Made by a program: the position numbers and the translations under genes
Part shown: positions 5,081-34,118 of the stretch, piece by piece
Layout: each line of letters begins with the position of its first letter
Position numbering within the stretch: position 1 is the stretch's first letter
Notes under the pieces: model-generated
Database searches by the model: none
Told to the model about the DNA's origin: nothing
The model's input: the letters and a program-made list of their open reading frames with translations, nothing else
Assembly (NCBI GenBank): GCA_902791025.1
Contig: CADATZ010000002.1
Location: forward strand, 124,001 to 188,000
DNA: 64,000 nt
Direction of reading: 5' to 3'
DNA from: an uncultured Chloroflexota bacterium
Lineage (GTDB): Bacteria > Chloroflexota > Anaerolineae > Anaerolineales > Anaerolineaceae

Positions 5081-5216
5081 ATCGGAGATGGGAGATGTTA
5101 GACGGTAGATATTAGACAATAGAAGATAGATTCAAGATGTTTATAGTTAGAAACAGTATGATAATTCAATTTCAAACATTAAACTACCAACTGCCAACTT
5201 CTAACTTCCAACTTTA
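5081..5216. repeat. Paired degenerate TTAG / CTAAC array
   Basis: Directly from the TAG stop of the protease gene the sequence is built of purine-rich units (GGAGATG, GTTAGACGG, TAGATATTAGAC) to about 5135. After a short spacer, complementary pyrimidine-rich units follow (CTACCAACTGCC, CTTCTAACTTCC) to about 5216. The two halves could pair imperfectly. It is one of several such arrays in this window. Confidence 0.6.
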
Positions 5217-5234
5217 AAATTGTCACTTCCGGAG

Positions 5235-5262
5235 TTGACATTTTCACGAAATTGGAGATAAT
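5235..5262 (+). promoter_or_regulatory. rpsT promoter
   Basis: TTGACA at 5235-5240 and GATAAT at 5257-5262 are separated by 16 bases, close to a consensus vegetative promoter. The roughly 105-base leader before rpsT contains the perfect palindrome ACCCTCGAGGGT at 5289-5300, which could be part of a regulatory leader structure; no function can be assigned. Confidence 0.7.
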
Positions 5263-5377
5263 TAGAGACGTTCTTGAGTTCCATGTATACCCTCGAGGGT
5301 TTCAAACGGAGCGGAAAAAGGTCATAAAAAGGCCTGCAACGGGAGAGACTCAGTATACCTTTGGAGGAAAATAAACA

Positions 5378-5644
5378 ATGGCAAACATTAAATCACAGAA
5401 GAAGCGCAATCGTCAGAATGAAGCTCGCAGACTGCGCAATCGTGCCGTCCGCGGCGTCACCCGTTCCGCTTTGAAGAACGCCCGCCTGGCGATCGAATCC
5501 GGCGCAGACAACCAGGAAGAACTGGTCTACGCTGCCGTGAAAGCGCTCGACAAGGCTGCTCAGAAGGGTGTTATTCACAAGAATAACGTCGCCCGTCACA
5601 AGAGCCGCCTGATGCATAAACTGGCCGATGCCCAGAATGCATAA
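5378..5644 (+). CDS. rpsT: 30S ribosomal protein S20
   Basis: The 88-residue product is the usual length for S20 and very rich in Lys and Arg. It opens with the family's typical N-terminus (M-A-N-I-K-S-Q-K-K-R) and contains the alpha-helical basic pattern ending in a K-S-R-L-M-H-K-L region. S20 binds 16S rRNA early in small-subunit assembly. A TTTGGAGG ribosome-binding site precedes the ATG. It is a single-gene unit with its own promoter and a strong terminator. Confidence 0.97.
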   Translation: MANIKSQKKRNRQNEARRLRNRAVRGVTRSALKNARLAIESGADNQEELVYAAVKALDKAAQKGVIHKNNVARHKSRLMHKLADAQNA

Positions 5645-5655
5645 TTGATTGCCGT

Positions 5656-5687
5656 AAAAAGCCCGCTGCATGCAGCGGGCTTTTTTG
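5656..5687 (+). terminator. Rho-independent terminator of rpsT
   Basis: The perfect palindrome made of GCCCGCTGCA (5661-5670) and TGCAGCGGGC (5671-5680) is followed by six T's and preceded by five A's. It would work for rpsT and may also work on the minus strand for the converging LysM gene. Confidence 0.92.
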
Positions 5688-5770
5688 TTTTATATCATTT
5701 TCCAAAGATCAGGACAGGTTACCTGCCATCACAGAGACAACAGAGGAAGACCGGAAATGTACACCTCATT

Positions 5771-6802: not shown

Positions 6803-6914
6803 AGCCGACTGCTCCTTCCGGAATACCAATATATTTATAAATTATATCATATAACATTAAAGAAAACCGATATTTTTTCTTTTCCGTCAAAAGCAAAAGA
6901 AATTTACTCCGGAC

Positions 6915-6943: not shown

Positions 6944-6999
6944 AAAGAGGTGTTTTTTATAAAATAAATAATAAAACAACGAGAATCAAGAGAAAACAC

Positions 7000-9222
7000 A
7001 TGAACCGAAAAACAGAAAAACAATTGCAGCCATATTTCACGCCCCTGGGAACCTGGGCATTTTCTATCGGCACCAGTATCGGATGGGGTTCATTTGTCGT
7101 AACCTGCAACGCTTATCTCGCTAAGGCAGGTGTTCTGGGAACGGCACTTGGTCTGATTCTCGGCATGCTGGTGATTCTTGTCGTAACACACAACCTGATT
7201 TACATGATTCAGCAAAGTCAGGACGCGGGAGGCATATATACCTTTTCAAAGAAAATCTGCGGAAATGACCATGGATTTCTTACCGCATGGTTCCTGCTGC
7301 TCACTTATCTGGCTGTACTCTGGGCAAACATTACCTCACTGCCGCTCTTCGCGCGCTATTTTCTTGGTGACATTTTCCATTTTGGGTTCCATTATCACAT
7401 ATTCGGCTATGAAGTATGGTTTGGAGAGGCATTACTCTCCATCACTGCCATCATCCTGATCACGCTGTTATGCTCCAGGAGCCGGAAGACCACACAAAAA
7501 ATTGAAATCATATCTGCACTGGCATTTGTTATCGGGTTCACCGTCTTTGCAATTACGGCCTTGATACGGCATAAGGGCAGTTCCTTCAGCTTTGAACCGT
7601 TTTATCTGCCGGATTCACCTGCGTTCGGTCAAATCATCCATATTGCGGCTATTTCACCCTGGGCCTTCATCGGCTTTGAAAATATCACGCACTTTTCCGG
7701 CGAATTTGCCTTTCCTGTGAAGAAGACCCGCTCTATTCTGGTCACATCTGTTGTCATCACCACACTGCTTTACATTTTTGTCACACTTCTTTCTGTCAGT
7801 GCGTATCCGCCGGAATACAACTCCTGGCTGGAATATCTGCAGGATATGGGAAATCTGCAGGGTATCAAGGGTGTTCCTGCTTTCTACGCCGCATACCATT
7901 ACTGGGGGAATACCGGTGTAGCTGTATTACTCGTTGCACTATTCGGAGTGATCCTTACCAGTCTGATCGGCAATACAACTGCATTAAGCCGGCTGCTTTT
8001 CGCAATGGGCCGGGATGGCGATATTATGCCAAATTTTGCCAATCTGAACAGCAACCATATACCGGCTAACGCGGTTTTTGCCATTGGCGCAATCTCCATA
8101 TTAATTCCTTTCCTCGGACGTACTGCTATCGGCTGGATCGTGGATGTCACAACACTCGGATCAACCATCATTTACGGATTCGCCTCCTATACTGTTTATC
8201 AGGCAGCTCGTGAAAGAGGAGATAATAGAGAAATAATTACCGGAATCGCCGGAGCCGTTTTGATGACAATATTTGCGGCACTGCTGCTGATTCCCAGCCT
8301 GATCACTGCCAACGCTATGGCATCTGAATCCTACATACTTTTCACCTTGTGGGCGGTTCTGGGACTGATATATTTTCGCTCCATGGTACTGAAAGATCGG
8401 GATCAAAGGTACGGCCAGTCCATCATCGTCTGGGTCATTCTTCTGCTGCTGGTTCTATTTGCCTCCATGATGTGGGTTTCCAGAGCGACACAGCGTACAA
8501 CTGACGCAGCTATGACCGAGATCCATAAGTATTATCAGGAAAATATAAAAGATGGCAAGATTCCGGAAGATGACATGGAATTTCTGAACATGCAATCTAC
8601 CCGCATTGACAGACAGAATGCTATGTATACGATTGCTTCTTTTGTAATTTTTATCGTCTCCACCACCATCATGCTGACGAATTACAATCTTATGAACAAA
8701 CGGGAAAAGGAGCATCAGGAAAAACTCAGAGCCGCAGAATCCAAAGCCGCAACCGACCCGCTCACCGGCATTAAGAACAGGCTTGCGTATGAGCACTACG
8801 AAAGGAACCTGAATGAACAGATACGAACGGATCATAATATTAATTTTGCCATTGCAATCGCCGATGTCAATGATCTGAAATCAGTTAACGACAACATCGG
8901 ACACAGCGCCGGAGATGAATGTATACGCAATGCCTGCAAACGGATCTGTCAAACATTCAAGCACAGTCCTGTGTTCCGTATCGGCGGAGATGAATTTGCT
9001 GTGCTTCTGCAGGGAGCAGATTACGAAGATCGCGAGCATCTGCTCAGCGAGATAAGAGAGAATCCAACACCAGAAGTACCCGGGTCTTCTCTGGCTGTCG
9101 GAATGGCTGAATTTATTCCGGGTAAGGATGAATCCGTCCTTGCCGTCTTCACACACGCCGACCGCCTGATGTACCAGCAAAAATCAAAAATGAAGCAGGA
9201 GATAGGAGATAGGAGTCAGTAG
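7000..9222 (+). CDS. APC-family amino-acid permease fused to a GGDEF diguanylate cyclase
   Basis: Residues about 15-510 form a multi-spanning transporter of the amino acid-polyamine-organocation superfamily (glycine-rich first helix with G-T-S-I-G-W-G-S). After a juxtamembrane helical stretch (about 560-585) comes a full GGDEF domain: D-P-L-T-G-I-K-N-R-L start, D-V-N-D-L-K metal-binding segment and the exact G-G-D-E-F at residues 662-666. The product-inhibition site (RxxD a few residues upstream) is absent, so feedback by cyclic di-GMP may be missing. The likely role is to couple uptake or sensing of an amino acid or amine to c-di-GMP synthesis. The substrate is unknown. No good ribosome-binding site is seen. 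The last seven codons and the stop lie in a TTAG repeat. Confidence 0.88.
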   Translation: MNRKTEKQLQPYFTPLGTWAFSIGTSIGWGSFVVTCNAYLAKAGVLGTALGLILGMLVILVVTHNLIYMIQQSQDAGGIYTFSKKICGNDHGFLTAWFLLLTYLAVLWANITSLPLFARYFLGDIFHFGFHYHIFGYEVWFGEALLSITAIILITLLCSRSRKTTQKIEIISALAFVIGFTVFAITALIRHKGSSFSFEPFYLPDSPAFGQIIHIAAISPWAFIGFENITHFSGEFAFPVKKTRSILVTSVVITTLLYIFVTLLSVSAYPPEYNSWLEYLQDMGNLQGIKGVPAFYAAYHYWGNTGVAVLLVALFGVILTSLIGNTTALSRLLFAMGRDGDIMPNFANLNSNHIPANAVFAIGAISILIPFLGRTAIGWIVDVTTLGSTIIYGFASYTVYQAARERGDNREIITGIAGAVLMTIFAALLLIPSLITANAMASESYILFTLWAVLGLIYFRSMVLKDRDQRYGQSIIVWVILLLLVLFASMMWVSRATQRTTDAAMTEIHKYYQENIKDGKIPEDDMEFLNMQSTRIDRQNAMYTIASFVIFIVSTTIMLTNYNLMNKREKEHQEKLRAAESKAATDPLTGIKNRLAYEHYERNLNEQIRTDHNINFAIAIADVNDLKSVNDNIGHSAGDECIRNACKRICQTFKHSPVFRIGGDEFAVLLQGADYEDREHLLSEIRENPTPEVPGSSLAVGMAEFIPGKDESVLAVFTHADRLMYQQKSKMKQEIGDRSQ

Positions 9223-9420
9223 TTCGTAGTCAGTAGTTAGTAGTTAGTAGACATTAGACATTAGACTTTTGGAAACACCTAACGCCTAACCTATAATTTC
9301 ATATTTCTAATACCCTATTTCTAACACCCAATTCCTAACCCACAGCCCCTAACACCTAACACCCAATTCCTAACACCTAATTCCCAGTCCCCAATCCCTA
9401 ATCCCTAACACCCGACATCT
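9200..9420. repeat. Long paired degenerate TTAG / CCTAA array
   Basis: The array begins inside the 3' end of the permease-GGDEF gene (GGAGATAGGAGATAGGAG) and runs through GTAGTTAGTAGTTAG units to about 9266. From about 9275 it switches to complementary units such as CACCTAACGCCTAACC, CCTAACACCTAACACC and CCAATTCCTAACACC up to about 9415. It fills the gap before the methyltransferase. Units vary in spacing and sequence, so it is not a CRISPR and not a perfect tandem repeat. Confidence 0.7.
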
Positions 9421-9431
9421 CAATTCCGTTG

Positions 9432-9437
9432 TATAAT
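9432..9437 (+). promoter_or_regulatory. -10 box of a likely leaderless methyltransferase mRNA
   Basis: TATAAT lies exactly 7 bases before the ATG at 9445, so the expected transcription start is at or next to the start codon. No ribosome-binding site is present. The alternative ATG at 9436 overlaps this box and is less likely. Confidence 0.6.
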
Positions 9438-9444
9438 GAATCTC

Positions 9445-10338
9445 ATGATAAATGTCGATGAAAAACCGGTTGTGAATTTATTAACTTCCCCCGGATGGGA
9501 AGATTATCGTCTGCTCGACAGTGGTAACGGCAGAAAGCTGGAACAGTTCGGGCCATACCGGCTGATCCGTCCGGAAGCGGAAGCTGTCTGGTCTCCCATG
9601 ATGAACACAGAGGAGTGGGAAAAGGCTGCTGCCGAATTTATTCCATCCGCGGAAGAAAACGGGGGACACTGGAAACTGTTGAAAAAACTTCCCGACAGTT
9701 GGAAACTCCGCTATCGGAATCTGACACTGAAAGCTATGCTCTCCAATTCCAAACAGCTCGGCGTCTTTCCGGAACAGGCCTGTCACTGGGACTGGGTAAC
9801 AGAACGTATTCGCAGCGCGAATCAAACAATGAAAGTTCTGAATCTCTTTGGCTACACCGGCGCCATCAGTATGGCTTGTGCCGCAGCCGGCGCAAAAGTG
9901 ACCCACCTCGATGCATCCAAAAAAGCAGTAGCCTGGGCGAAAGAGAATCAAGAACTCAGCAAAGTACCACTTGACCGCATCCGCTGGATTCTCGATGATG
10001 CTCTGAAATTCGTTCAGCGGGAATCCCGACGGGGATCGCTTTATGAGGGAGTGATCCTTGACCCGCCGAAATTCGGACGGGGACCGAAGGGAGAAGTATG
10101 GGAGTTTTACAAAGGCTTCCCGGCACTCCTCGAAGCATGTGCAAACGTACTTTCCGACCGGGCTGATTTTATGCTCGTCACAGCTTATGCAGTTAAAGCC
10201 TCATCCGTTACCCTTTACAACGCGCTCAGCGAGGTCAATCGCAGACGAGGTGGGACCGTTTCTGTCGGTGAAGTCTGTAACTGTGATAACGCGGGGCGGC
10301 TTTTGTCGATGGCAGTATACGGTCGTTGGATGGCATAA
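9445..10338 (+). CDS. Class I SAM-dependent methyltransferase (RlmI/RlmK-like)
   Basis: The protein (297 residues from this start) has a Rossmann methyltransferase core: motif I L-N-L-F-G-Y-T-G, the acidic end of strand 2 at H-L-D-A-S, and the catalytic-type D-P-P-K-F-G-R-G that is characteristic of the RlmI/RlmK group of rRNA base methyltransferases. An N-terminal beta-rich part of about 100 residues precedes it, but the PUA domain of E. coli RlmI is not evident. The target base is unknown; 23S rRNA is the family's usual substrate. It seems to be transcribed alone from a leaderless promoter. Confidence 0.8.
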   Translation: MINVDEKPVVNLLTSPGWEDYRLLDSGNGRKLEQFGPYRLIRPEAEAVWSPMMNTEEWEKAAAEFIPSAEENGGHWKLLKKLPDSWKLRYRNLTLKAMLSNSKQLGVFPEQACHWDWVTERIRSANQTMKVLNLFGYTGAISMACAAAGAKVTHLDASKKAVAWAKENQELSKVPLDRIRWILDDALKFVQRESRRGSLYEGVILDPPKFGRGPKGEVWEFYKGFPALLEACANVLSDRADFMLVTAYAVKASSVTLYNALSEVNRRRGGTVSVGEVCNCDNAGRLLSMAVYGRWMA

Positions 10339-17990: not shown

Positions 17991-20251
17991 TGCCCTTTAC
18001 ACCCCGTGAAGAACAACAGCAGGTTCTCTCTTACACCGGCGGCACGATGGGAATTTCAGCCGTTCCCGGAAGCGGCAAGACCTTTACGCTTTCCGCTCTG
18101 GCTGCTGATCTCGTTGAGAAGCTCGTCCGTAATTCTGCTGACCGGGAGCCGGATCAGGAGATCCTGATCGTCACATTCTCCAATGCCGCAGCGCTGAACT
18201 TTTCCGCCCGCATCGCTGCCTTTCTGGCTGAACGGGGACTGCTGCCGGGGATCGGTTATAAAGTCTGCACCCTGCACAGCATGGCACTGGATATCATCCG
18301 CGGACACACACAACAGCTGGGCATTCAGGATGATTTTACGGTTCTCGATGAAGTCGGTTCTGATGCATTGCTTCGCCGTGCCGTGGATCTGTGGCTGGCA
18401 GCTGATCAACGGGAAACCTTTGACCGCGTTATCGAACCAAGATTGAAACCGGAAACACAGGATGAAAAATATCGTGAGAAATGGCGCGATGACGTGACGG
18501 ATATCGTCCGCAATGTAATTTCTCAGGCAAAGGATTATCACGTCACACCGGAAGATCTGCGGAAAAACATGGCTGTCACGGATGACCGGTTCGTCCGTCC
18601 GCTGCTGGAAATGGTCTGTGATATCTATGGTTTCTATCAGACGCAGCTGCGCAATTATCCGGCCATGGATTTTGCGGATCTGATGTTTTACGCTTATCAG
18701 CTGCTGACAACTGACAGCGGTTATCTTGCCTGGCTTCAGCACCGTTGGCCCTACATTTTAGAGGACGAAGCACAGGACAGCTCACTGATTCAGGAAGAAG
18801 TGCTGCGGATGCTAACGGCAAAAAGCGGGAACTGGGTACGCGTAGGCGACCCGAACCAGGCGATCAATGAAACCTTCACCACCGCGAATCCAAAATATCT
18901 GCGCAGCTTTATCGAAAAAGCTGACAGCAATGTTCCCATGGAAACGGCCGGACGATCCCAGCGCAGCGTACTGGCACAGGCAAACCGCCTTGTCAATTAC
19001 GTCGTCACATCTCATCCAAACCCGGAATGCAGGAACGGTCTGGCACCGACATACGTGCGGCTCACGCGGCCGGACGATAAACAGGGCAACCCGCCGGATG
19101 ATCCTTCCCGAATCATTTATGATCCGGTGCTTTATTCCACCCGGGAGGAAGTCGATGTCATCAGCCGTCTTGCGGTAAAGCACGCACAGGAACATCCAAA
19201 TAAGACGATCGCCATTCTCGCACCGAGCAATGAATACGGAAAGGAATTTGTAAACCGGCTTGAAGACTTCCCGATTGAAGTCGTGGAAGTACTCAAAAGC
19301 ACGAAAAAAGCCCGGGCATCCGCCGATGTGATCGCAGCGGTATTGGATTGGCTCTCCGTTCCGCTGAACCGAAAATACTGCCTGGCTTTATTCCAAATGC
19401 TGTACAGTGAACGGGAAAAGGGAGAATTCTATCTCACGGAAGCAGATCAGAAAAAAGCTGCGGATATTCTCGAAAATATGGAACATCCGGAAGATTTCTT
19501 TTATCCGATTTCTGAAGACAACCTGCACGAATTGCTGGAAAGCTGGGGACTCGACGAACTGATGACGCAAACCATGTTCCGTTTCCGCTATTTCCTGAAA
19601 CGCTGGCTGGATGCTCGGTTTCTGCCGATCGATCAGCTCATTCTGCTCATCGGTCAGGATCTTTTCAGCACGTCAGAGGATCTCTGCTGCGCTGGACAGA
19701 TCGGCATCCTGCTCGCTCAGGTTATACGCATGAACCCGGAACTGAAACTCAGCTCCATGGCGGCAGAAGTACGCAAAATCGCCTCCAACGCAAATCTATA
19801 CGCAGGATTAAGAGGGTCTGATTCACAATTCGATCCCAATGATTACCCGGGCAAGATCGTCGTCACCACCTATCATAAAGCCAAAGGTCTCGAATGGGAT
19901 CAGGTTTTCCTGACGAGCTGCAACAATTACGACTTTCCGGACGGGAGCGAGGCTCAATATGTAAACCGCCGTTACAAACCGCGTTATGTGAGGGATAACC
20001 TGGACCTCCAGGCTGAAATCCTGCAGGCGCTGAAGGTGGTTTCCTTCCCGCATCTGGGGATGCAGTATCGCCGCGGGGATGGCAGCCGAAATGCCTGGCT
20101 GGACAGTGTGAAAGAACGGCTGCGTCTCCTCTATGTCGGCATCACCAGAGCAAAAAAGGGCTTATACATTTCCTTCAACAGCGGACGCTACGGAAAAACC
20201 ACTGAGGCCAATGTGATCATGAAGCTGAGAATGATGTGGAACCATAGATAG
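17990..20251 (+). CDS. UvrD/PcrA/AddA-type ATP-dependent DNA helicase
   Basis: The 753-residue protein has a full set of superfamily 1A motifs: Q-motif region R-E-E-Q-Q, Walker A A-V-P-G-S-G-K-T (24-31), motif Ia with T-F-S-N-A-A-A, Walker B D-E-A-Q-D, motif III G-D-P-N-Q-A-I, motif V T-T-Y-H-K-A-K-G-L-E-W-D, and motif VI R-L-L-Y-V-G-I-T-R-A-K. It should be an active 3'-5' translocase. It lacks a nuclease domain of its own; that activity is likely given by the gene 41 bases downstream. An AGGAGG site precedes the ATG, which overlaps the previous stop. The end of the gene runs into a short GTGAATGGTGAATGG repeat. Confidence 0.9.
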   Translation: MPFTPREEQQQVLSYTGGTMGISAVPGSGKTFTLSALAADLVEKLVRNSADREPDQEILIVTFSNAAALNFSARIAAFLAERGLLPGIGYKVCTLHSMALDIIRGHTQQLGIQDDFTVLDEVGSDALLRRAVDLWLAADQRETFDRVIEPRLKPETQDEKYREKWRDDVTDIVRNVISQAKDYHVTPEDLRKNMAVTDDRFVRPLLEMVCDIYGFYQTQLRNYPAMDFADLMFYAYQLLTTDSGYLAWLQHRWPYILEDEAQDSSLIQEEVLRMLTAKSGNWVRVGDPNQAINETFTTANPKYLRSFIEKADSNVPMETAGRSQRSVLAQANRLVNYVVTSHPNPECRNGLAPTYVRLTRPDDKQGNPPDDPSRIIYDPVLYSTREEVDVISRLAVKHAQEHPNKTIAILAPSNEYGKEFVNRLEDFPIEVVEVLKSTKKARASADVIAAVLDWLSVPLNRKYCLALFQMLYSEREKGEFYLTEADQKKAADILENMEHPEDFFYPISEDNLHELLESWGLDELMTQTMFRFRYFLKRWLDARFLPIDQLILLIGQDLFSTSEDLCCAGQIGILLAQVIRMNPELKLSSMAAEVRKIASNANLYAGLRGSDSQFDPNDYPGKIVVTTYHKAKGLEWDQVFLTSCNNYDFPDGSEAQYVNRRYKPRYVRDNLDLQAEILQALKVVSFPHLGMQYRRGDGSRNAWLDSVKERLRLLYVGITRAKKGLYISFNSGRYGKTTEANVIMKLRMMWNHR

Positions 20252-20280
20252 TGAATGGTGAATGGTGAATAATAAATAGA
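20252..20280 (+). repeat. Short GTGAATG repeat at a gene end
   Basis: Right after the TAG stop of the helicase are units GTGAATGGTGAATGGTGAAT followed by AATAAATAG. It resembles the degenerate arrays at other gene ends here but has no complementary half. Confidence 0.45.
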
Positions 20281-20292
20281 AACAGGTAGCAG

Positions 20293-21120
20293 ATGGCAGG
20301 AATAAATATAATCACGCAGACACAGATTTCGGCTTTTGAACGCTGCAGGCGGTTTTATTATCTCAAAAATATCCGCAGGCTGGTTTGGCCGGTAGAAACA
20401 GAAGGAAACCATAACCGTCAGCAGGGAGATGATTTCCATCTGCTCATCCGCCAGCTGATCCTGGGACTTTCTGCGGATAGCCTGATTATCCCGGAAGGGG
20501 CAGAGGACGTCAAACGCTGGCTTGATGTTTATCTTGCGAAAAGACCGCTTGGAACCCCGCAGATCGTTTTTGCGGAAAAAGATGTTTCCGCCCTTTATGC
20601 TGATGTCCTTTGGACCGGTAAATTTGACGCGCTGACAATCAATGATGATCAATTGACCATTTATGATTGGAAAACAGGTTCTGCCAAACCGGATCCCGAA
20701 CATTACCGCACCGCTCCTCAAACTCGTCTGTACCGCTTTCTTGCCAAAAGCTGTGCCGCACGTCTGTTAGGTGCCGGTCTGCATGCTGTTCCGGCTGAAA
20801 ACATCGAAATGGTTTACTGGTTTCCGGAACATCCGGAGAAAACCATCCGATTGCCATATTCGGAAGAAGCCTATCAGCAGGACATGACCTGGCTGAAAAC
20901 GCTCGCGGCTGAGATGGCTTCACAAAACCAGGATGATTACCCGAAAACCACAAAGACCAGACAATGTGAACATTGCAGCTATCGGACGTACTGCTCACCG
21001 GAAACCTTCTTTCCGGATTCATTCCCGGATGAAGCGGATGATCCCGATGAAATCTTCCAGACCGAACTATTCCCACCCGAAGCCTTTTCTGAAACAGACC
21101 GGGAAGATATCACATTCTAA
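20293..21120 (+). CDS. RecB-type PD-(D/E)XK nuclease with Fe-S cluster motif
   Basis: The 275-residue protein is a stand-alone Cas4/RecB/AddB-type nuclease domain. The catalytic core is Asp112 (G-K-F-D-A) and Asp125-Trp-Lys127 (Y-D-W-K-T-G). One cysteine near the N-terminus (Cys18, in E-R-C-R-R-F-Y-Y) and three near the C-terminus (Cys225-x2-Cys228-x5-Cys234) match the iron-staple arrangement of AddB, AdnB and Cas4 enzymes. It follows the helicase in the same direction, so the three genes probably form one helicase-nuclease machine for double-strand break processing. An acidic tail of about 35 residues has no assigned role. Confidence 0.85.
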   Translation: MAGINIITQTQISAFERCRRFYYLKNIRRLVWPVETEGNHNRQQGDDFHLLIRQLILGLSADSLIIPEGAEDVKRWLDVYLAKRPLGTPQIVFAEKDVSALYADVLWTGKFDALTINDDQLTIYDWKTGSAKPDPEHYRTAPQTRLYRFLAKSCAARLLGAGLHAVPAENIEMVYWFPEHPEKTIRLPYSEEAYQQDMTWLKTLAAEMASQNQDDYPKTTKTRQCEHCSYRTYCSPETFFPDSFPDEADDPDEIFQTELFPPEAFSETDREDITF

Positions 21121-22703: not shown

Positions 22704-22785
22704 GGCTGTAAAATCCTCCTCACAATATTTTGCCATGAAACCGATAAAAACCGATTCCGGTCATGACATTTTTTTATTACTTTCC

Positions 22786-22791
22786 ATTATA
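22786..22791 (-). promoter_or_regulatory. -10 box of the PII-like/exchanger operon
   Basis: TATAAT on the minus strand, preceded by GTGT, lies about 83 bases before the PII-like start. It is back to back with the alr promoter. Confidence 0.5.
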
Positions 22792-22820
22792 ACACCCAAC
22801 ACCTAACACCCAACACCTAA
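22790..22820 (+). repeat. CCTAACACC repeat between divergent promoters
   Basis: Units AACACCCAACACCTAACACC and CCAACACCTAAAA fill the space between the -10 boxes of the PII-like gene and alr. This is the CTAAC-type half of the degenerate array family, without a TTAG-type half. Confidence 0.55.
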
Positions 22821-22828
22821 AATTAAGG

Positions 22829-23967: not shown

Positions 23968-25716
23968 TTGATCTCAGCACCCGCTTCACTTTACCGCTGG
24001 ATCCCGTATCCCACCATGCCTGCTGAAGCTCTCAGTGAGCTTGCAGCCTATCCGCGCGTTCTGCAAAAGCTGTTATGGATCCGCGGAATCACCACACGCC
24101 GGGAAGCCGAGATATTTCTCACACAAAATGGCAGTCTGTACGATCCGCTGGATCAGGTGAAGGGCATGAAAAACATGCCGAAAGCGGTGAAAATGATCTG
24201 GGAGGCGGTAGACCGTGGGCAGAAAATCGCGGTTTATGGTGACTACGATGTAGATGGCATCACCGCCAGCACGATCCTGGTGCAATTGCTGCAGAAAATC
24301 GGTGCACCTGATCCGGTGAGCTATATTCCCGATCGCTTTGAAGAAGGATACGGTTTGAACAAAGAGGCATTAAAGACACTCTTTGATGCCGGGACCGATC
24401 TTGTTATCACGGTAGACTGCGGGATCCGTTCCACGGAAGAAGCACTTTATGCACAGCAGCTGGGACTCAAGCTGATCATATCCGATCACCATGAACCGGG
24501 TGAAGAGATCCCGGCCGCGGATGTGGTGATCTGTGCCAAACAACCGGGTGATCCATATCCGGAAAAAAATCTTGCAGGAGTCGGTGTGGCTTATAAAATT
24601 GCGGAGGCGGTTTTGGAAGCCCGTCCACAGGTCGGTTTTGAAGCCCGTGATTGGGTGGATATCGCGGCAATCGGCACGGTTGCTGATATCGTTCCCATGA
24701 GCGAAGAAAACCGGGCTATTGTCAAGGATGGACTGAGAAAGCTGCGAAACCAGCCGCGCTCCGCGATCCAGGCATTGGCGGAAGTCGGCGGATTCCGAAC
24801 CGCGGAAATTTCCAATCAAACCATCGGTTTCGGCATTGCTCCGCGGCTGAACGCGCCCGGACGGCTGGACAAAGCAAGTCTCTCCTTTGACCTGATGATG
24901 AGTGAAAAGCTTTCCGAAGCACGCCGGTTAGCGGAAGAAGTAAATCAGAAAAACACAGAGCGCAAGGATCTTACCGCACTGATCCAGAAAAAAGCCGCTG
25001 ACAGTATTCCAAAAGACAAAGTTCCCGCCGTCGTGTGCTGTCGGGACAAAGAATTCAATATGGGAATCGTCGGATTGGGAGCCGCCCGCCTTTCCGACAC
25101 GTTTTACCGTCCAACCATTATCGGCGCGGAAGGTGAAACGGAAACTCGCGCATCCTGCCGCTCCATCGAAGAATTCAGCATGATCGAAGCACTGGATGAG
25201 ATCAACGCGGCATATCCGGGATTGCTGAAAAAGTACGGTGGACACTGGAAGGCCGCCGGGCTGACAGTTGACAACGATAAATGGGATGAATTTGTGTCCC
25301 GCATCAATGAACTCGCTGAGAAAAAATTAGACTGGAAACAGCTGACCCCGGCAAAGAAATACGATATGGAGCTGACAACAGCTTATGCAGATCTGGCCCT
25401 TGTCGAACTGCTGGAGCAGCTGGAACCATTAGGCGAAGGGAACCCGGAACCGCTGTTTGTCTTCCGCAATCTGAAAGTTCAGTGGGTGAAACGAATCGGG
25501 AAAGACCAGACACACCTCAAAGTCACCTTTGCCGATGAGAACGGCCGGGTGATCGACGCGGTCGGTTTTGGTCTTGCGGATTGGTGCGACTGGCTCAAGT
25601 CCCACGACCGAATCGACGTGCTCTGCAAGCTCGAGAAAAACACCTATCAAAACGAAACCAAGCTGCAATTGCAGGTCATTGATTTCAGAATTCCGGAAGG
25701 AGACGTTAGGAGATAG
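23968..25716 (+). CDS. recJ: Single-stranded-DNA-specific exonuclease RecJ
   Basis: The 582-residue protein has the DHH phosphoesterase motifs (Y-G-D-Y-D-V-D-G near residue 90, S-D-H-H-E-P-G near 170) and the DHHA1 domain with G-G-H-x-x-A-A-G, followed by an OB-type C-terminal part. RecJ degrades ssDNA 5'-3' in recombination and repair. A TTG start at 23968 with AAAGG upstream is assumed; an internal ATG about 48 bases later is an alternative. The last codons and the TAG stop are made of repeat sequence (GTTAGGAGATAG). Confidence 0.93.
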   Translation: MISAPASLYRWIPYPTMPAEALSELAAYPRVLQKLLWIRGITTRREAEIFLTQNGSLYDPLDQVKGMKNMPKAVKMIWEAVDRGQKIAVYGDYDVDGITASTILVQLLQKIGAPDPVSYIPDRFEEGYGLNKEALKTLFDAGTDLVITVDCGIRSTEEALYAQQLGLKLIISDHHEPGEEIPAADVVICAKQPGDPYPEKNLAGVGVAYKIAEAVLEARPQVGFEARDWVDIAAIGTVADIVPMSEENRAIVKDGLRKLRNQPRSAIQALAEVGGFRTAEISNQTIGFGIAPRLNAPGRLDKASLSFDLMMSEKLSEARRLAEEVNQKNTERKDLTALIQKKAADSIPKDKVPAVVCCRDKEFNMGIVGLGAARLSDTFYRPTIIGAEGETETRASCRSIEEFSMIEALDEINAAYPGLLKKYGGHWKAAGLTVDNDKWDEFVSRINELAEKKLDWKQLTPAKKYDMELTTAYADLALVELLEQLEPLGEGNPEPLFVFRNLKVQWVKRIGKDQTHLKVTFADENGRVIDAVGFGLADWCDWLKSHDRIDVLCKLEKNTYQNETKLQLQVIDFRIPEGDVRR

Positions 25717-25728
25717 GAGTTAGTGGTC
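25700..25728 (+). repeat. TTAG-type repeat at the recJ/cobU junction
   Basis: GGAGACGTTAGGAGATAGGAGTTAGTGG forms the end of recJ and runs to the converging cobU stop. No other terminator is visible between these converging genes. Confidence 0.5.
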
Positions 25729-26292: not shown

Positions 26293-27065
26293 ATGCATCC
26301 TTTCACTACTTCCATAGAGGATTCAAAATCTGATTGATTGAAAATTTCCAGGGTAACCACACCGCTGTAAGAGGCAAGAAAGAGTTCATCGATTACACTT
26401 TTGATAAGCCCTTTGTCCATATGAGAAAGGGACTGGTGATCGCGCGTTCCAACACCATGCAGATGGATGACCGAGGTAAGCGGGAGCCATTTCCGCATTA
26501 CCGGCACCGGATCGATCTTCTGCAGGAACAAATGACCGATATCCAGGCAGACATGCGTACCGCAGGCATGAACAACGGGGCCGTTCCATTCAATCGGATA
26601 GGTCTCCAGGTTTTCAACAGCAAGCTCCGACCGGATCCCGGAACGTTCGGACAGCATATTCACCGCCCGGATGCGCTGCTGCTGCCATTCTGACAAATCC
26701 GGTCCTTCTGCGAATGGGATATCCTTACATTCCAGATGGCAAACGTAAGCAAACGGATCCAAATCCCGTGTCCCGTTGATGACCTTCAAAGCCTTTTCAA
26801 TAGAGATATCGCACGCATCCGCTGAAAAATTGAGGTTTAATGGCAAATGAACGGTGTAACTCAGTCCGTTTTCCGCCGCAAGGCGGTTCAGTTTCTCAAC
26901 TTGTTTTTCATCGGGAATATTGCAGTATTCATCGATATCAAAAAGCACCAGTTCAATATCCTTCACCTTATCCGCAAGAAAACGGACATTCGGAAGAATA
27001 TCATCAGGAATAATATAGGAACTGGTCCCGATGCGGAAGGGAAGTTTGTCGATCCAACGGTTCAC
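26289..27065 (-). CDS. cbiR: Cobamide remodelling phosphodiesterase CbiR
   Basis: The 258-residue protein is a TIM-barrel of the xylose-isomerase/AP-endonuclease-2 superfamily. Its opening F-R-I-G-T-S-S-Y-I-I-P followed by I-L-P-N-V-R-F-L and D-I-E-L-V-L-F matches CbiR as I know it. CbiR, described in Akkermansia, cuts the nucleotide loop of incoming cobamides so that the corrinoid can be rebuilt with another lower ligand. Metal-binding candidates are seen in V-H-L-P, C-H-L-E, A-V-E-N and L-D-I-G-H. Its place between cobS and cobU, with GTGA and ATGA overlaps on either side, strongly supports the role. It starts with GTG. Confidence 0.82.
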   Translation of the reverse strand: MNRWIDKLPFRIGTSSYIIPDDILPNVRFLADKVKDIELVLFDIDEYCNIPDEKQVEKLNRLAAENGLSYTVHLPLNLNFSADACDISIEKALKVINGTRDLDPFAYVCHLECKDIPFAEGPDLSEWQQQRIRAVNMLSERSGIRSELAVENLETYPIEWNGPVVHACGTHVCLDIGHLFLQKIDPVPVMRKWLPLTSVIHLHGVGTRDHQSLSHMDKGLIKSVIDELFLASYSGVVTLEIFNQSDFESSMEVVKGCI

Positions 27066-27805
27066 GGGAGCACCTGTGCTGCGAGCAGGATAATGATTTC
27101 TCCGAGTTCTATGCTGAATCCCAGCACGTCACCATTGATCCCGCCGATCTTCTTTTTTGCTGTCCAACCCAGCAAAAAGACAAATAGAACATTGACCGGC
27201 AGATAAAGCAGTCCCCATGGAATTCCGTAAAGAATCGCAAGGAGAATCGGAAGCGGAGAGGCAAACAAAACGATCTGCTCCGGGCAATACTTTCGCAGCA
27301 TCGCGGCCAACCCGTTGGGATTCACCAACGGCAGCCGGATCAACATCAGCATTGCCCACCGGGCAGATGCACCTGTCAGTGCAAAGAAAATCAGGAACTT
27401 ATTTGCCGGAAGATTCCAGATGCAGAGCCATTTCAAAGTCAGCGCGCAGAAAACTCCCAGCGCACCATAGGTACCCAGACGGGAATCCTTCATGATCTCC
27501 AGCCGCCGTTCCGGTGCCGCAGAGCACCAGAATCCATCCATGCAGTCAGCAAGCCCATCCCAGTGCAATCCCCCGCTGAGGAGGATCCAGACGATCAGAC
27601 AAAGAAACGCGGCAATCGGCTTTACAAAAAAGGCAGAAAAAAGCCTGTAAGAACCTCCCGCGCATAAACCGATCAAGGCACCGACCAACGGGTAAAATAC
27701 CGCTGACCAGCCAAAATCGAGATCACTCCATTCTTTCCGCTGTGGTACAGGCAGAACAGTAAGAAATCCCAAAGCCATGCGAAATGCATTAATAAAATCC
27801 GGCAT
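27062..27805 (-). CDS. cobS: Adenosylcobinamide-GDP ribazoletransferase (cobalamin synthase)
   Basis: The 247-residue membrane enzyme joins adenosylcobinamide-GDP with alpha-ribazole. It opens with the usual F-L-T-V-L-P-V-P and has the catalytic G-G-L-H-W-D-G-L-A-D-C-M-D-G-F motif and about six membrane segments. It heads the operon cobS-cbiR-cobU. A TAGAAT box lies 9 bases before its ATG and no ribosome-binding site is seen, so its mRNA may be nearly leaderless. Confidence 0.95.
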   Translation of the reverse strand: MPDFINAFRMALGFLTVLPVPQRKEWSDLDFGWSAVFYPLVGALIGLCAGGSYRLFSAFFVKPIAAFLCLIVWILLSGGLHWDGLADCMDGFWCSAAPERRLEIMKDSRLGTYGALGVFCALTLKWLCIWNLPANKFLIFFALTGASARWAMLMLIRLPLVNPNGLAAMLRKYCPEQIVLFASPLPILLAILYGIPWGLLYLPVNVLFVFLLGWTAKKKIGGINGDVLGFSIELGEIIILLAAQVLP

Positions 27806-27819: not shown

Positions 27820-27962
27820 AAATCAGGATGTAGAAGGTAGGATGTAGAAGGTAGAAGGTAGGATGTAGGATGTAGGATGCAGGATGTAGAAGATAAACAT
27901 TATCGCTTTATCTCTACCACCTACCACCTACCAACACCTAACACCCAACACCTAACACCTTT
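27820..27962. repeat. Paired degenerate array between galK and cobS
   Basis: On the + strand, units such as AGGATGTAGAAGGTAGAAGG and TAGGATGTAGGATGCAGG run to about 27893. A short spacer with AAACATTATCGC is followed by CTACCACCTACCACC and CACCTAACACCCAACACC units that end at the galK stop. The two halves are broadly complementary, so a long imperfect hairpin can form. On the minus strand the array begins at the galK stop codon. Confidence 0.7.
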
Positions 27963-29244
27963 AAAATACCTGCGCACAGCCGATCGGGCGGATGGACATC
28001 AGCGTGCAGGCGCCCGGGAAGAGCTGCGCTTCCACATCCTGTTTGAAGCTTTCCACCATATCGACCGGAACAATAGCCAGAATAGTACCGGCAAAACCGC
28101 CGCCATGTACACGGAAAGCGCCCTTTCCCTTCAGAGCACGTTCAGCCACAGCGAGTGCATACGCCACATCCTGATGCTCAGTTTGTCCGCTGATGATAAC
28201 ATTCTGCAGGTGGATATAGGAAGAGATACCGGATTCTTTGACGATCCTGAGGAAACCATCAATATCATTTTTCTCCAGAGCTTCGGCCTCATCAACCGCG
28301 CGCTTGTTTTCCTCAAAGAAATGGATGGCACGCAGAACTGCTCTGTCGCCGGTTTGCTTCCGAACCTTACCGATTTCGGCCCAAAATTCGTTTTCATCCA
28401 CTTCGCGGAGAACTTCCTTTCCGAAAGCAGCGGCAACCTTGCGCATTTCGATCGGGATCCCGGCATAGACATTGGAAAGATCCGCATGGGCACTGCCGGT
28501 ATCAATGACGAAAATGGAATACTGTTTTCCCAGCACTTCGGTTGAAATCGGCCGGATAACAGGTGCGGAAGTATCCTTGAAATCAATCGCGACAAAACCG
28601 CCGACTGCTGAAGCTGTTTGATCCATCAAACCACTGGGCTTGCCAAAATAATGCTGTTCGGCATATTGCCCAATTTTCGCGAGTGTCACCGGAGAATGCT
28701 GACCGCCGCAGAATAAGCCGTTCAATACTTCACCATACAGCACTTCAAAGGCAGCGGAAGATGAGATGCCGGAGCCGCCGGGGACATCAGAAGTGATACA
28801 TACATTAAAGCCCTGAACATCAAAGCCGGCTTTTTTGATCTCAGCGGTAACCCCGCGCACCAGAGAAGCGGTCGTCTCGTGTTCATCAGCATGCGGTTCC
28901 AGGTCATTCAGGTCAATTTCAAGTCCGCCGTAGCCAACGGAAAAAACGTTGATTTTGTCAGTCCCGTTCAGTCCGGCAGCAGCGATCATATCGCGGTCAA
29001 TGGCTGCGGCAAGGACACAGCCGTGCTGATGGTCGGTATGATTACCGCCGACTTCAATACGTCCGGGAGCGCTGAAAAGATGAATATCCTGCGGCTCCGG
29101 GAAATGCTCCTTATAAGCACTCAGAAGTGTGAAAATTCGGTTTTGATACTTCTCCCGGTCGGAATCGTAGCGGGGATAGAGTTTCTTCAGTGTTTCGTCA
29201 TAGGTACCCTGACGAACAGCTTCGACAGCCTGGGTAATATTCAT
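27961..29244 (-). CDS. galK: Galactokinase
   Basis: The 427-residue GHMP kinase phosphorylates galactose at C1 (Leloir pathway). The galactokinase signature reads A-P-G-R-I-E-V-G-G-N-H-T-D-H-Q-H-G (59-75), with G-G-N-H in place of the common I-G-E-H; the ATP loop is P-G-G-S-G-I-S-S-S-A-A, and the C-terminus has V-H-G-G-G-F-A-G-T. A roughly 50-residue N-terminal extension is present compared with E. coli GalK. AGGAG precedes the ATG. It is four bases downstream of a membrane glycosyltransferase gene, so the two are co-transcribed. Confidence 0.92.
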   Translation of the reverse strand: MNITQAVEAVRQGTYDETLKKLYPRYDSDREKYQNRIFTLLSAYKEHFPEPQDIHLFSAPGRIEVGGNHTDHQHGCVLAAAIDRDMIAAAGLNGTDKINVFSVGYGGLEIDLNDLEPHADEHETTASLVRGVTAEIKKAGFDVQGFNVCITSDVPGGSGISSSAAFEVLYGEVLNGLFCGGQHSPVTLAKIGQYAEQHYFGKPSGLMDQTASAVGGFVAIDFKDTSAPVIRPISTEVLGKQYSIFVIDTGSAHADLSNVYAGIPIEMRKVAAAFGKEVLREVDENEFWAEIGKVRKQTGDRAVLRAIHFFEENKRAVDEAEALEKNDIDGFLRIVKESGISSYIHLQNVIISGQTEHQDVAYALAVAERALKGKGAFRVHGGGFAGTILAIVPVDMVESFKQDVEAQLFPGACTLMSIRPIGCAQVF

Positions 29245-31771: not shown

Positions 31772-31778
31772 GTCTCTA

Positions 31779-31851: not shown

Positions 31852-31947
31852 CCGAACTGGCCCAGGACATCAGACAAGAATTATTGTACTATCAAACAGA
31901 GTGATTAAAAAATCTGCATATTGCGGTTTTGAGTAGATATTTTAATT

Positions 31948-32037
31948 CGGAGCACATGGGGACTGGCATCTTGTGCGGCGCAGCACGCACAAGTGTGCCT
32001 GTCCTCATGTGCTCCGCTGCGGGTTCTGAACAGTTAC
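31948..32037. repeat. Nested-palindrome repeat, copy 2
   Basis: The outer arms CGGAGCACATG (31948-31958) and CATGTGCTCCG (32006-32016) are perfectly complementary and continue inwards as GGGACTGGCA / TGCCTGTCC with few mismatches. The inner stem is CTTGTGCG (31970-31977) with CGCACAAG (31986-31993). The flank CGCTGCGG to CAGTTAC is shared with copy 1. It lies just 3' of the membrane protein gene at 32041, as copy 1 lies 3' of the exchanger gene. Confidence 0.85.
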
Positions 32038-32040
32038 TTT

Positions 32041-33081
32041 TTATTTAATTTCATCGATCAGCAGGGTGTTGCGCTGTCCGTCATCAATAATAAGGGCCGT
32101 CAGCACGCTGCTGCTCATTGTCCCATCCCGATTATAGCTGGTCAATGTATAGCGAACTTCAGCCGGATTCACATTTTCCGCCTGCAGATATGCCTGGGAA
32201 ACATCATATCTGCTGACATTGCCCAGAAGCGCCCGATAATTTTCGATTGGGGTCCCGCTTCCGTTATAACAGCAGCTCACCTGCATATCTTCCGAGAGCA
32301 TCCACCAGGCCTGGTCAAAATTTCTGTCATTCAGATAGGTGTAATAGGTAATGATAAATTGCTGGGGCGTTGGGTATTTTCCGCTGGGCCAGGGCGTATT
32401 GGTCGGCTGGCTGCCGGACGAAATGTTCAGGATCAATGATTCACCATATGCAGCTGCAGTGGCATTAAAAGCGAGATAATCCGAGACACCGAAAAGCGGT
32501 GTTTCCGTCGGCGCCATCGCCGTTTCATTCGCGTTCATTGTTTCAACGACCTGTGTATGACCCAGGGCTGCCTGCTGCGTTTGTAAGACAAAATTCTCCC
32601 GCTGTAAAAAAAGTCTGGATCCGATCACGAAGCCAAGAACCAGAAGAAAAATTGCGCCGAGGATGTAAAATGTATTTTTGAGAATAGGATGAGCGACTGC
32701 CTGCTTTCGGGTCTCTTCCAGTGGAGAAAAATAATACCCTCCCACAGTTCCGGAACCGCCGTTACTGGTGATCAGCGCAATAAAGTCCGATCCCAGTTGA
32801 TGCGTCGTCCAGACCGTGGGAGATAATTTTATGATAGAAAAAACATGAACCGAACTTTCGCCCGGGTTTAATCGAAAGTTTTTCGGGTTAACATCGATCC
32901 AGCCAACCTGAACATTGATCTGACCGGATAAAACACGGTCACCCTCATTCGTAATGGTAAGAACTGCCTGTCCCCGCTTTTTGATTTCCCGGGCATTATT
33001 CAATTCACCGAAATCCAGCATATCCGGCTCAAAACTGAGCCTTGCTGCCGGAATTTTTTCTGTCTCGATTTTATCGGCCAA
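32041..33081 (-). CDS. Single-pass membrane protein with Ig-like N-terminal and NTF2-like C-terminal region
   Basis: I do not recognise the family. The start is uncertain: the open frame extends 126 bases into the ROK kinase gene, and the TTG at 33081, just after the kinase stop, is taken here (346 residues). The N-terminal about 110 residues form a beta-sandwich-like region with F-E-P-D-M-L-D-F-G-E-L, similar to ASPM/SPD-2/Hydin-type domains. One membrane helix follows (F-Y-I-L-G-A-I-F-L-L-V-L-G-F), then an Ala/Thr-rich linker and a C-terminal domain (P-T-P-Q-Q-F-I-I-T-Y-Y-T-Y-L) that looks like the NTF2-like folds common in lipoproteins of this group. Confidence 0.5.
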   Translation of the reverse strand: MADKIETEKIPAARLSFEPDMLDFGELNNAREIKKRGQAVLTITNEGDRVLSGQINVQVGWIDVNPKNFRLNPGESSVHVFSIIKLSPTVWTTHQLGSDFIALITSNGGSGTVGGYYFSPLEETRKQAVAHPILKNTFYILGAIFLLVLGFVIGSRLFLQRENFVLQTQQAALGHTQVVETMNANETAMAPTETPLFGVSDYLAFNATAAAYGESLILNISSGSQPTNTPWPSGKYPTPQQFIITYYTYLNDRNFDQAWWMLSEDMQVSCCYNGSGTPIENYRALLGNVSRYDVSQAYLQAENVNPAEVRYTLTSYNRDGTMSSSVLTALIIDDGQRNTLLIDEIK

Positions 33082-33088
33082 AAACAGC

Positions 33089-33982
33089 TCACTTGTTTTC
33101 CGCTGACTGAGCCAATGCGACAGCGCCGCAGGCACCGGCTCGGTCGCCAAGCACAGGCGGAGTGATGTAACTGTCAATATGTTCAGTAATCGCGGGAGCC
33201 TGCACATAATCGTTCAGAAGCCGCAGGACTTCCTTGCGGATCTTCGGGAAAACGTGCAGCTGGTGCATCACACCACCGCCAAGCACGATCTTTTCCGGAG
33301 AAAGCATCAGAATCTGAGCGACACAGGTCTGGGCGAGGTAATTTGCGAACACATCCCAGAACGGGTGATCCTCACCGAGCTGGTCCGCCGGAATACCAAA
33401 GCGGTCTTTGATCGCAGGTCCCGCACACAAGCCTTCCAGACAATCGCCATGGAACGGGCAATGGCCCTGATAAGGATCCTTTTCGGGATCTCTGCGGAGA
33501 AGGACATGTCCGGCTTCCGGATGAAGCAGTCCATGGAGCGGCTTCCCATCGATCACCGCACCGGCACCGACCCCGGTCCCAATCGTGTAATAAACAAGAG
33601 ATTTGCGGTTTTCCGGATTTCCCCACCGGTATTCTGCCAATGCAGCTCCGTTGACATCCGTATCAAAGGCACAGGGCAAACCAAGCTCTTTTTCCAGCGG
33701 ACCGATCAGATCGGTATTTTTCCATCCGGGTTTCGGTGTGCTGGTAATATAGCCGTATGTCGGTGATTCGGGATGCAGATCAATCGGTCCGAAGGAGGCC
33801 ACACCAATGGATTGCAGCGTATATTTTTTCATTTGTTCTTTGAAAAAATCAATCGTTCTGCCAATGGTTTCCTCCGGTGCCGTAGTGGGGAAACGCACTT
33901 CCTCGACATAATGGTCCGGGTCTGAGGCAATAGAACACACGAATTTCGTCCCGCCGGCTTCAATAGCTCCGTAATATTTCAT
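33089..33982 (-). CDS. ROK-family sugar kinase, fructokinase type
   Basis: The 297-residue kinase has the ROK phosphate motif (E-A-G-G-T-K-F near residue 8), the D-T-D-V-N-G-A-A sugar-binding segment, G-T-G-V-G-A-G-A and the zinc motif H-C-P-F-H-G-D-C at about 170-178 preceded by G-H. The sequence fits bacterial fructokinases (fructose to fructose-6-phosphate), though mannose or glucose cannot be excluded. GGAGG lies 4 bases before the ATG. Its end overlaps the possible extended frame of the next gene. Confidence 0.85.
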   Translation of the reverse strand: MKYYGAIEAGGTKFVCSIASDPDHYVEEVRFPTTAPEETIGRTIDFFKEQMKKYTLQSIGVASFGPIDLHPESPTYGYITSTPKPGWKNTDLIGPLEKELGLPCAFDTDVNGAALAEYRWGNPENRKSLVYYTIGTGVGAGAVIDGKPLHGLLHPEAGHVLLRRDPEKDPYQGHCPFHGDCLEGLCAGPAIKDRFGIPADQLGEDHPFWDVFANYLAQTCVAQILMLSPEKIVLGGGVMHQLHVFPKIRKEVLRLLNDYVQAPAITEHIDSYITPPVLGDRAGACGAVALAQSAENK

Positions 33983-33994
33983 AAAACCTCCGAT

Positions 33995-34118
33995 AATAGG
34001 TGTTAGGTGTTATGGGGTGGGGGTTAGTTTGTTGTGTGAATGGGGATAGAGTTTTGAATCCACTACCTCATAACTCCTAACTACCAACTTTCAACTTACA
34101 ACTTCTAACTTCTATTAT
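33995..34118. repeat. Paired degenerate array between the ROK kinase and clpC
   Basis: TAGGTGTTAGGTGTTATGGGG and GGGGGTTAG units (about 33998-34030) are followed, after a spacer, by CTACCTCATAACTCC, CTAACTACCAAC and CTTACAACTTCTAAC units to about 34115. The pattern is TTAG-type first, CTAAC-type second, as in the other arrays. The gap separates divergent genes; the clpC promoter must lie after it, in the AT-rich stretch at about 34120-34200. Confidence 0.65.

What the first reader, a model, noticed from the sequence alone, without database searches (positions are those of the whole stretch)
5081..34118. Paired degenerate TTAGG-like / CCTAA-like arrays fill many gene boundaries
At 5081-5216, 9200-9420, 27820-27962 and 33995-34118 the same plan recurs: on the + strand a block of purine-rich degenerate units with GTTAG/GGTGTTAG cores, a spacer, then a block of units with CTAAC/CACCTAAC cores. 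Half arrays occur at 20252, 22790, 25700 and 59891, and an 11-bp inverted repeat of the same core at 1601-1656. The order (TTAG first on the + strand, CTAAC second) holds for all four full arrays whatever the direction of the flanking genes, so each can fold into a long imperfect hairpin. They often replace terminators, for instance between galK and cobS. A role as terminator, mRNA 3'-end stabiliser or nucleoid-protein site is inferred. I do not know a named element of this kind.
Basis: partly seen in the sequence, partly recalled or inferred. Interest (0 to 1): 0.75.

Follow-up and report, generated by a model that had tools for sequence, protein, structure and literature searches.

The report
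Heptamer repeat arrays at stop codons
Many gene ends in this bacterium carry degenerate 7-base repeats that start at the gene's stop codon and often face a second, opposite repeat block; they belong to a little-studied class of bacterial 7-base repeats, and the fixed facing orientation, seen here in many phyla, is a clue to how such repeats arise.

Summary
The arrays are strictly period-7 tandem repeats (G-rich strand NNNN-Y-A-G). In 1.67 Mb of the same genome there are 163 clusters. In 54 of 54 paired clusters the G-rich block comes first; the opposite order never occurs. G-rich arrays sit on the sense strand at stop codons (108 genes; antisense 6), usually in phase with a TAG stop (76% of these genes versus 20% genome-wide). 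Four array-bearing congeners show the same rules. In 117 stretches of named genomes and 30 whole genomes from many phyla, facing pairs are G-first with no C-first pair found; viral contigs hold a few.

The terminator reading is weak. Ordinary terminators are as common at array ends as elsewhere, arrays lie inside tight gene pairs and between divergent promoters, and one of the four window elements folds no better than shuffled sequence. Sites turn over between congeners.

The class is known: cyanobacterial STRRs, Xanthomonas GGGAATC and Nostoc GGGGAYT arrays, Beggiatoaceae TAACTGA. New here are the TAG phase lock and the breadth of the polarity rule. My best explanation is in-situ 7-base repeat expansion seeded at gene ends, with the second arm made by fold-back copying. 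The mechanism is inferred.

The parts
1600..1656 (.). minimal inverted repeat TCAGCAGTTAG...CTAACTGCTGA, about 1-2 units per arm, G-first; possible incipient or decayed element 3' of the gene ending at 1589
   Evidence: sequence read; folds to an 11-bp stem, z -3.1; HMM calls a short C array at 1645-1665
5063..5152 (+). G arm of a paired element; starts in the last codons of gene 2060-5080 and is in phase with its TAG stop
   Evidence: HMM, units listed
5174..5213 (-). [quoted passage not shown]
   Evidence: HMM
9193..9253 (+). G arm overlapping the 3' end (TAG at 9222) of gene 7000-9222; the G012 ortholog ends in TGA and has no array
   Evidence: HMM, ortholog comparison
9274..9426 (-). C arm, about 21 units, reaching to 10 bp before gene 9436-10338
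   Evidence: HMM, tandem repeats
20248..20303 (+). single G array at the TAG stop of 17990-20251; different short arrays at the orthologous site in G012 and G005
   Evidence: orthologs
22790..22821 (-). single C array between divergent genes 22368-22736 (-) and 22842-23957 (+); G005, G006 and G013 have full G-C elements with other units at this site
   Evidence: orthologs
25682..25727 (+). single G array overlapping the ends of convergent recJ (24016-25716, TAG) and 25720-26292
   Evidence: orthologs
27821..27895 (+). G arm of the element between 27062-27805 (-) and galK 27961-29244 (-)
   Evidence: folding z -3.8/-3.7
27914..27960 (-). C arm abutting the TAA stop of galK (minus-strand gene), so G-rich on galK's sense strand
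33994..34036 (+). G arm of a paired element between divergent genes 33089-33982 (-) and 34243-36792 (+)
34060..34116 (-). C arm of the same element; folding z -3.5 on +, -1.1 on -
59888..59918 (+). single G array at the TAG stop of 55868-59893, filling the 25 bp to convergent gene 59919-61205

Best explanation
These are heptanucleotide tandem-repeat arrays (STRR / heptameric SSR class) that arise and expand in place at gene ends. SHOWN: period 7; G-rich unit NNNN-Y-A-G; G-rich strand on the sense strand at stop codons, in phase with TAG stops; facing pairs G-first; fast turnover between congeners; net gain in spacing between genes. INFERRED: a YAG at or near the gene end, most often the TAG stop itself, seeds slipped-strand expansion in 7-nt steps. 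Growth is tolerated because this DNA is not translated; a sense-strand array closes all three reading frames, so it cannot run more than about three units into the gene. The second arm is made when the G-rich strand of sense polarity folds back on itself and is copied; this gives G-spacer-C and not C-spacer-G, after which the two arms drift apart. Why the sense strand is favoured is not known; one candidate is R-loops forming on G-rich RNA once the ribosome has left at the stop codon. Any effect on termination or mRNA stability would be secondary.
For: Period 7 only. Unit model. 54:0 G-first pairs in 1.67 Mb; four congeners 23:0; 49 G-first pairs plus one five-array run (GCGGC), and no C-first pair, in 117 stretches of named genomes. 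G-first pattern: 35 hits in a 21-genome set and 31 hits in a 292-genome cyanobacterial set; C-first pattern: 0 in 30 genomes that include the hit-bearing ones. Sense-G at stop 108 genes v 6 antisense; 82/108 TAG v 272/1388 (Fisher p 1e-40). AG at +7/+14/+21 after the TAG stop .73/.71/.62 v control .08. Relatives without arrays at the same genes also use TAG more often (12/43 v 25/187, p 0.035), and gene C4_9 keeps the same TAG in five species while two of them grew different arrays behind it; this fits seeding at existing TAG stops. Arms of one element pair better than arms swapped between elements (-37.3 v -30.8 kcal/mol, none of 20000 permutations), as common origin plus drift predicts. Orthologous sites are shared more than chance (15 v about 7 expected, p 8e-4) but with different units. 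Published: indels in 7-nt steps between two Cyanothece strains (PMC4679880).
Against: Many elements have clearly different units in the two arms, which direct fold-back copying does not predict without later turnover. Twelve clusters lie between divergent genes, where no stop codon can seed. C-first pairs do exist in viral contigs (5 stretches, three of them one element, v 13 G-first), so the order is a strong bias, not a physical law. No transcription or strain-level mutation data were available. The TAG enrichment in relatives could be a fossil of an ancestral array instead of a seed.
Confidence: 0.45

Rival explanations
1. RNA-level element: the G-C pair forms a 3'-UTR hairpin that terminates transcription or protects the mRNA 3' end.
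For: Arrays start at stop codons; own arms pair better than swapped arms and elements fold better than shuffles; transcripts start or stop more often at G4-forming Xanthomonas repeats than at control repeats (PMC4692102).
Against: About two thirds of the clusters have no facing partner; terminators are not depleted at array ends and no U-tract follows; arrays in divergent regions and in operon-tight gaps; 9193-9426 does not fold; sites turn over between congeners; hairpin formation alone does not explain G-first order.
Confidence: 0.2
2. DNA-end scar: a double-strand break in the intergenic region is resected to the gene edges, both 3' ends are extended with G-rich heptamers, and the ends are joined, giving head-to-head arrays as in a telomere fusion.
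For: One rule (the G-strand 3' end points away from the gene) covers both gene ends in pairs: stop edges 59 inward v 0 outward, start edges 52 v 3. Arms often have independent units. Non-array spacing is smaller than in relatives in 27 of 28 tandem comparisons, though array overlap with coding sequence explains part of this.
Against: Single arrays lie almost only at stop codons in sense orientation (59 v 3 within 10 nt), which a break has no reason to prefer; own arms are correlated; no enzyme for G-rich heptamer addition is known to me.
Confidence: 0.12
3. Mobile element of the REPIN/RAYT type: a stand-alone Y1 transposase copies G-C elements into intergenic DNA, which fixes the polarity.
For: Y1_Tnp proteins of RAYT-like size occur in all five array-bearing congeners (2-7 matches) and are absent from seven of nine others, with one partial-domain hit in each of the other two. 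REP dimers mostly have GTAG termini outside (PMC3733652).
Against: The one such gene in fetched DNA (C9:60228-60953) is flanked by a different, palindromic, high-copy repeat and by no heptamer arrays; arrays share no sequence beyond the loose heptamer; the five array-bearing genomes may be one clade, so the correlation may be a single event; many single arrays.
Confidence: 0.08
4. Selected translation or RNA context: purine-rich arrays after stops (TAG in all three frames, strong stop context) and C-rich arrays before starts (no spurious Shine-Dalgarno sites) survive selection, while the opposite orientations are purged; the order G-C is a by-product.
For: Sense-G at stops and antisense-G upstream of starts; MacGregor also finds TAAC-type arrays just upstream of starts and notes the stop-codon limit on overlap (PMC4679880).
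Against: Xanthomonas GGGAATC and Nostoc GGGGATT arrays lie at stops in the same orientation (PMC4692102), and by my own translation of those units they contain no stop codons in the sense frames; purging would have to be nearly complete for 0 C-first pairs.
Confidence: 0.12

Closest known systems
GGGAATC / GGGGA(C/T)T heptameric repeats of Xanthomonas and Nostoc (Rehm et al. 2015, PMC4692102)
   Same: 7-bp degenerate units; mainly intergenic; G-rich strand on the coding strand within 50 bp of or overlapping the stop, and on the non-coding strand upstream of starts; rarer between divergent ORFs; 70-75 convergent pairs in each Xanthomonas genome; length and sequence turnover between species
   Different: Unit here is NNNNYAG, not GGG-based; only 10 of 225 arrays fit a three-tetrad G4 pattern; phase lock to TAG stops is not described there; polarity is extended here to other phyla
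TAACTGA direct repeats of Beggiatoaceae, Cyanobacteria and Bacteroidetes (MacGregor 2015, PMC4679880)
   Same: 7-bp unit whose complement TCAGTTA contains the YAG core; intergenic; TAAC strand in sense just upstream of start codons
   Different: That set is near-invariant and lies mostly before starts; here units are degenerate and arrays lie mostly at stops, often with an opposing arm
STRR, short tandemly repeated repetitive sequences of heterocystous cyanobacteria (Mazel et al. 1990; from own knowledge and citations in PMC4692102)
   Same: Heptanucleotide tandem arrays dispersed in many copies
   Different: Specific unit families; polarity and stop-codon relation not described in what I could read
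REP / BIME / REPIN elements
   Same: Dispersed intergenic inverted repeats, often 3' of genes
   Different: Defined 20-40 bp palindromes with a GTAG or CGTC tag; tail-to-tail dimers are frequent in some families; here no fixed palindrome
Integron attC sites
   Same: GTTAGGY / RYYYAAC-like cores (own knowledge)
   Different: attC has the C-type core first and no 7-bp tandem array; the order here is the reverse

Membership tests
Heptanucleotide tandem repeats (STRR / heptameric SSR class) | tandem units of exactly 7 bp in many dispersed, mainly non-coding copies | tested here: met
   lag-7 runs 57 v 0-2 at most other lags and 0 in shuffles; 910 of 5095 array bases fall in called genes
Rehm-type G-rich heptamers | G-rich strand in sense within 50 bp of the stop codon, convergent pairing | tested here: met
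   108 sense v 6 antisense at stops; 54:0 convergent pairs
Rehm-type G-rich heptamers | G3 tracts able to form a G-quadruplex | tested here: not met
   3-tetrad pattern in 10/225 arrays, 2-tetrad in 123/225
TAACTGA repeats | invariant TAACTGA unit just upstream of start codons | tested here: not met
   units degenerate; anchored at stops
Intrinsic terminator | G+C-rich hairpin followed by a U-tract | tested here: not met
   T content after elements 5.2/18, below the 5.7 expected; terminators not depleted at array ends
REP / REPIN | conserved short palindrome with GTAG-like tag, flanking its RAYT gene | tested here: not met
   no common palindrome; the RAYT-like gene examined is flanked by a different repeat
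Integron attC | inverse core (RYYYAAC) before core (GTTRRRY) | tested here: not met
   order is G core first in all pairs
mRNA 3'-end stabiliser | changes half-life of the upstream mRNA | not testable with these tools
   no expression data

The most novel reading that the evidence does not exclude
A general bacterial mutational process, active in many phyla, builds 7-nt repeats at stop codons from the sense strand only and adds the opposing arm by fold-back copying, so that G-rich 3' ends nearly always face each other; it would be a directional, translation-boundary-guided source of new intergenic DNA (for instance R-loop primed).
Probability: 0.2. Interest if true: 0.85.

Novelty: new variant of a known kind. 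Interest (0 to 1): 0.55.

Why it matters
Heptamer repeats have been reported piecemeal under different names. The polarity rule (no C-first pair in the bacterial genomes searched with the pattern) and the phase lock to TAG stops give a simple, testable signature that any explanation must meet. They also explain an odd stop-codon usage: 30% of TAG-ending genes in the sampled DNA end in an array. The same repeats change protein C-termini and intergenic spacing within a genus, so they are a visible source of gene-boundary evolution.

Tried and rejected
Reversed-genome control for the HMM was uninformative, because period-7 repeats survive reversal. G-quadruplex as the common principle: rejected, few arrays qualify. 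Terminator replacement: rejected. RAYT/Y1 transposase as the maker: correlated across congeners, but the gene examined is flanked by a different palindromic repeat. Integron attC resemblance: opposite order. TAG arrays as fail-safe stops: not general, since GGGAATC and GGGGATT units have no stops in the sense frames (own translation).

C-terminal comparison with the array-less congener G004 gave too few orthologs and was replaced by four closer congeners; C-terminal lengths differed little, and stop codons shifted to TAG. Rfam found nothing in the window. Exact GGGAATC pairs in viral contigs: none in either order. The host organism could not be named: genome handles are anonymous and the named scan leaves the own genome out.
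Full report
CHECK OF THE OBSERVATION. Tandem Repeats Finder gives period 7 and its multiples throughout. In 868 kb of the same genome, runs with at least 80% identity at a fixed lag number 57 at lag 7, 47 at 14 and 25 at 21, and 0-2 at nearly every other lag (4 at lag 24); shuffled sequence gives none. The whole genome (G000, 4.22 Mb, 75 contigs) holds 737 matches to CTAACNNCTAACNNCTAAC with up to 2 mismatches, and 19 to the reversed control.

ANATOMY. I wrote a gene caller and a cyclic 7-state HMM trained on intergenic DNA and applied them to 1.67 Mb (1388 genes). On the G-rich strand the unit is NNNN-Y-A-G; the G is the most constant base both between neighbouring units and between arrays. 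The unit varies freely elsewhere, also within one array. There are 163 clusters: 53 GC, one GCC, 46 G, 56 C, 5 CC, 2 GG. No cluster has C before G. Clusters lie in 18% of convergent, 16% of tandem and 8% of divergent intergenic regions of 20 bp or more.

GENE ENDS. Sense-strand G arrays lie at -45 to +10 of the stop codon in 108 genes, antisense arrays in 6. Of the 108, 82 end in TAG (76%), against 272 of 1388 genes overall (Fisher p about 1e-40). The array is in phase with that TAG: AG recurs 7, 14 and 21 nt later in 73, 71 and 62% of cases, against about 8% after TAG stops without arrays, and 42% and 22% one and two units upstream. Eighty of 106 tandem clusters start within 10 nt of the upstream stop (34 expected), while 21 end within 10 nt of the next start. 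For single arrays whose nearest gene edge is a stop, 59 within 10 nt point G-rich into the intergenic region and 3 point the other way. C arms of pairs often end 11-30 nt before the next start.

RELATIVES. Of 13 congeners, four (G005, G006, G012, G013) have clear excesses and nine have none. In fetched DNA the four show 23 G-first pairs and no C-first pair, the same unit core, and the same stop association (21 of 34 TAG). At orthologous gene ends arrays are shared more than chance (15 of 253 comparisons v about 7 expected, p 8e-4), yet most arrays present in G000 are absent in the relative (49 of 64). Comparisons count one G000 gene up to four times. At the divergent site 22736/22842 G000, G005, G006 and G013 carry arrays with four different units, and G012 a remnant. 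Gene C4_9 ends in the same TAG in five species; G000 and G006 have different arrays behind it. Where only G000 has an element between tandem genes, 11 of 28 relative gaps are 34 bp or less, so arrays enter operon-like spacing.

OTHER PHYLA. In 117 such stretches (up to 8 kb) there are 49 G-first pairs, one five-array run (GCGGC) and no C-first pair; sense arrays at stops 83, antisense 5; TAG 46 of 83 v 151 of 588. The exact pattern GTTAGNNGTTAG-N5-35-CTAACNNCTAAC has 31 hits in a 292-genome cyanobacterial set and 35 hits in a 21-genome set; the C-first pattern has none in 30 genomes, which include those with G-first hits. Overlapping repeats inflate the hit counts. Viral contigs give 13 G-first stretches and 5 C-first, three of the latter being one short palindrome. 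So the order is a very strong bias, with rare exceptions.

FOLDING AND TERMINATION. Window elements: z -1.6, -0.5, -3.8/-3.7, -3.5/-1.1. For all 54 pairs the median is -3.2 on one strand and -4.2 on the other; control 3' regions give -1.9 and the same arms in swapped order -2.6. Arms of the same element pair better than swapped arms (mean -37.3 v -30.8 kcal/mol, 0 of 20000 permutations). Terminator-like sites: convergent ends 38% with arrays, 43% without; tandem 16% v 19%; divergent control 6%. So there is real but modest hairpin potential, and no sign that arrays stand in for terminators.

HOW IT MOST LIKELY WORKS. Shown: period, unit, polarity, stop anchoring, turnover. Inferred: in-situ slipped-strand expansion seeded by YAG at gene ends, with the stop TAG as the commonest seed and an overlap limit set by the array's own stop codons; the second arm by fold-back copying of a sense-polarity G-rich strand, which yields only G-first pairs. 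The two main rivals are an RNA hairpin role and break-end scars with G-rich extension at both ends. The break-end model explains the edge rule in pairs well but not the stop preference of single arrays.

COMPARISON WITH THE KNOWN. The kind is known: Rehm et al. 2015 (PMC4692102) describe GGGAATC and GGGGAYT heptamers with the same strand rule at stops and starts and 70-75 convergent pairs per Xanthomonas genome, and found no leading/lagging-strand preference; MacGregor 2015 (PMC4679880) describes TAACTGA arrays, 7-nt indels between Cyanothece strains, and the stop-codon limit; cyanobacterial STRRs are older (own knowledge). I found no description of the TAG phase lock or of the polarity rule beyond Xanthomonas in the papers I could search; subscription papers were mostly not searchable. 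Not members of REP/REPIN, attC, intrinsic terminators or G4 repeats by the tests in the membership table.

LIMITS.

Noticed in passing
window 21177-21247, 31948-32037, 54553-54623; G000:C9:59828-61350: A dispersed palindromic repeat of about 65-105 bp (core CACATGGGGACAGGCACGCC / CCCCATGTG) gives well over 100 BLAST hits in 1.67 Mb. It flanks a Y1_Tnp (RAYT-like) gene at C9:60228-60953, so it looks like a REPIN-RAYT system separate from the heptamers.
   Followed up: partly
window 55868-59893: One 1341-aa open reading frame joins a full carbamoyl-phosphate synthase large subunit (1-1046) to diaminopimelate epimerase DapF (1067-1339): an unusual pyrimidine/lysine gene fusion.
   Followed up: no
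window 7000-9222: 740-aa protein with an amino-acid permease domain (about 4-470) followed by a GGDEF diguanylate cyclase domain (about 565-733).
   Followed up: no
genus comparison: All five array-bearing congeners have genomes of 4.0 Mb or more; the nine without arrays are 2.0-3.5 Mb. Array gain, Y1 transposase gain and genome growth may share one branch.
   Followed up: no
L284:1044-1098 and 2367-2424 (viral contig): Two G-C heptamer elements of one viral contig enclose different G+C-rich hairpins followed by TTCTTATT/CTCTTATT, like a terminator set between the two arms.
   Followed up: no
L291, L294, L295, L292, L293: Rare C-first pairs in viral contigs; L291/L294/L295 share one short palindrome, L292 and L293 look like true C-first heptamer hairpins. 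They are the only exceptions to the polarity rule found.
   Followed up: partly
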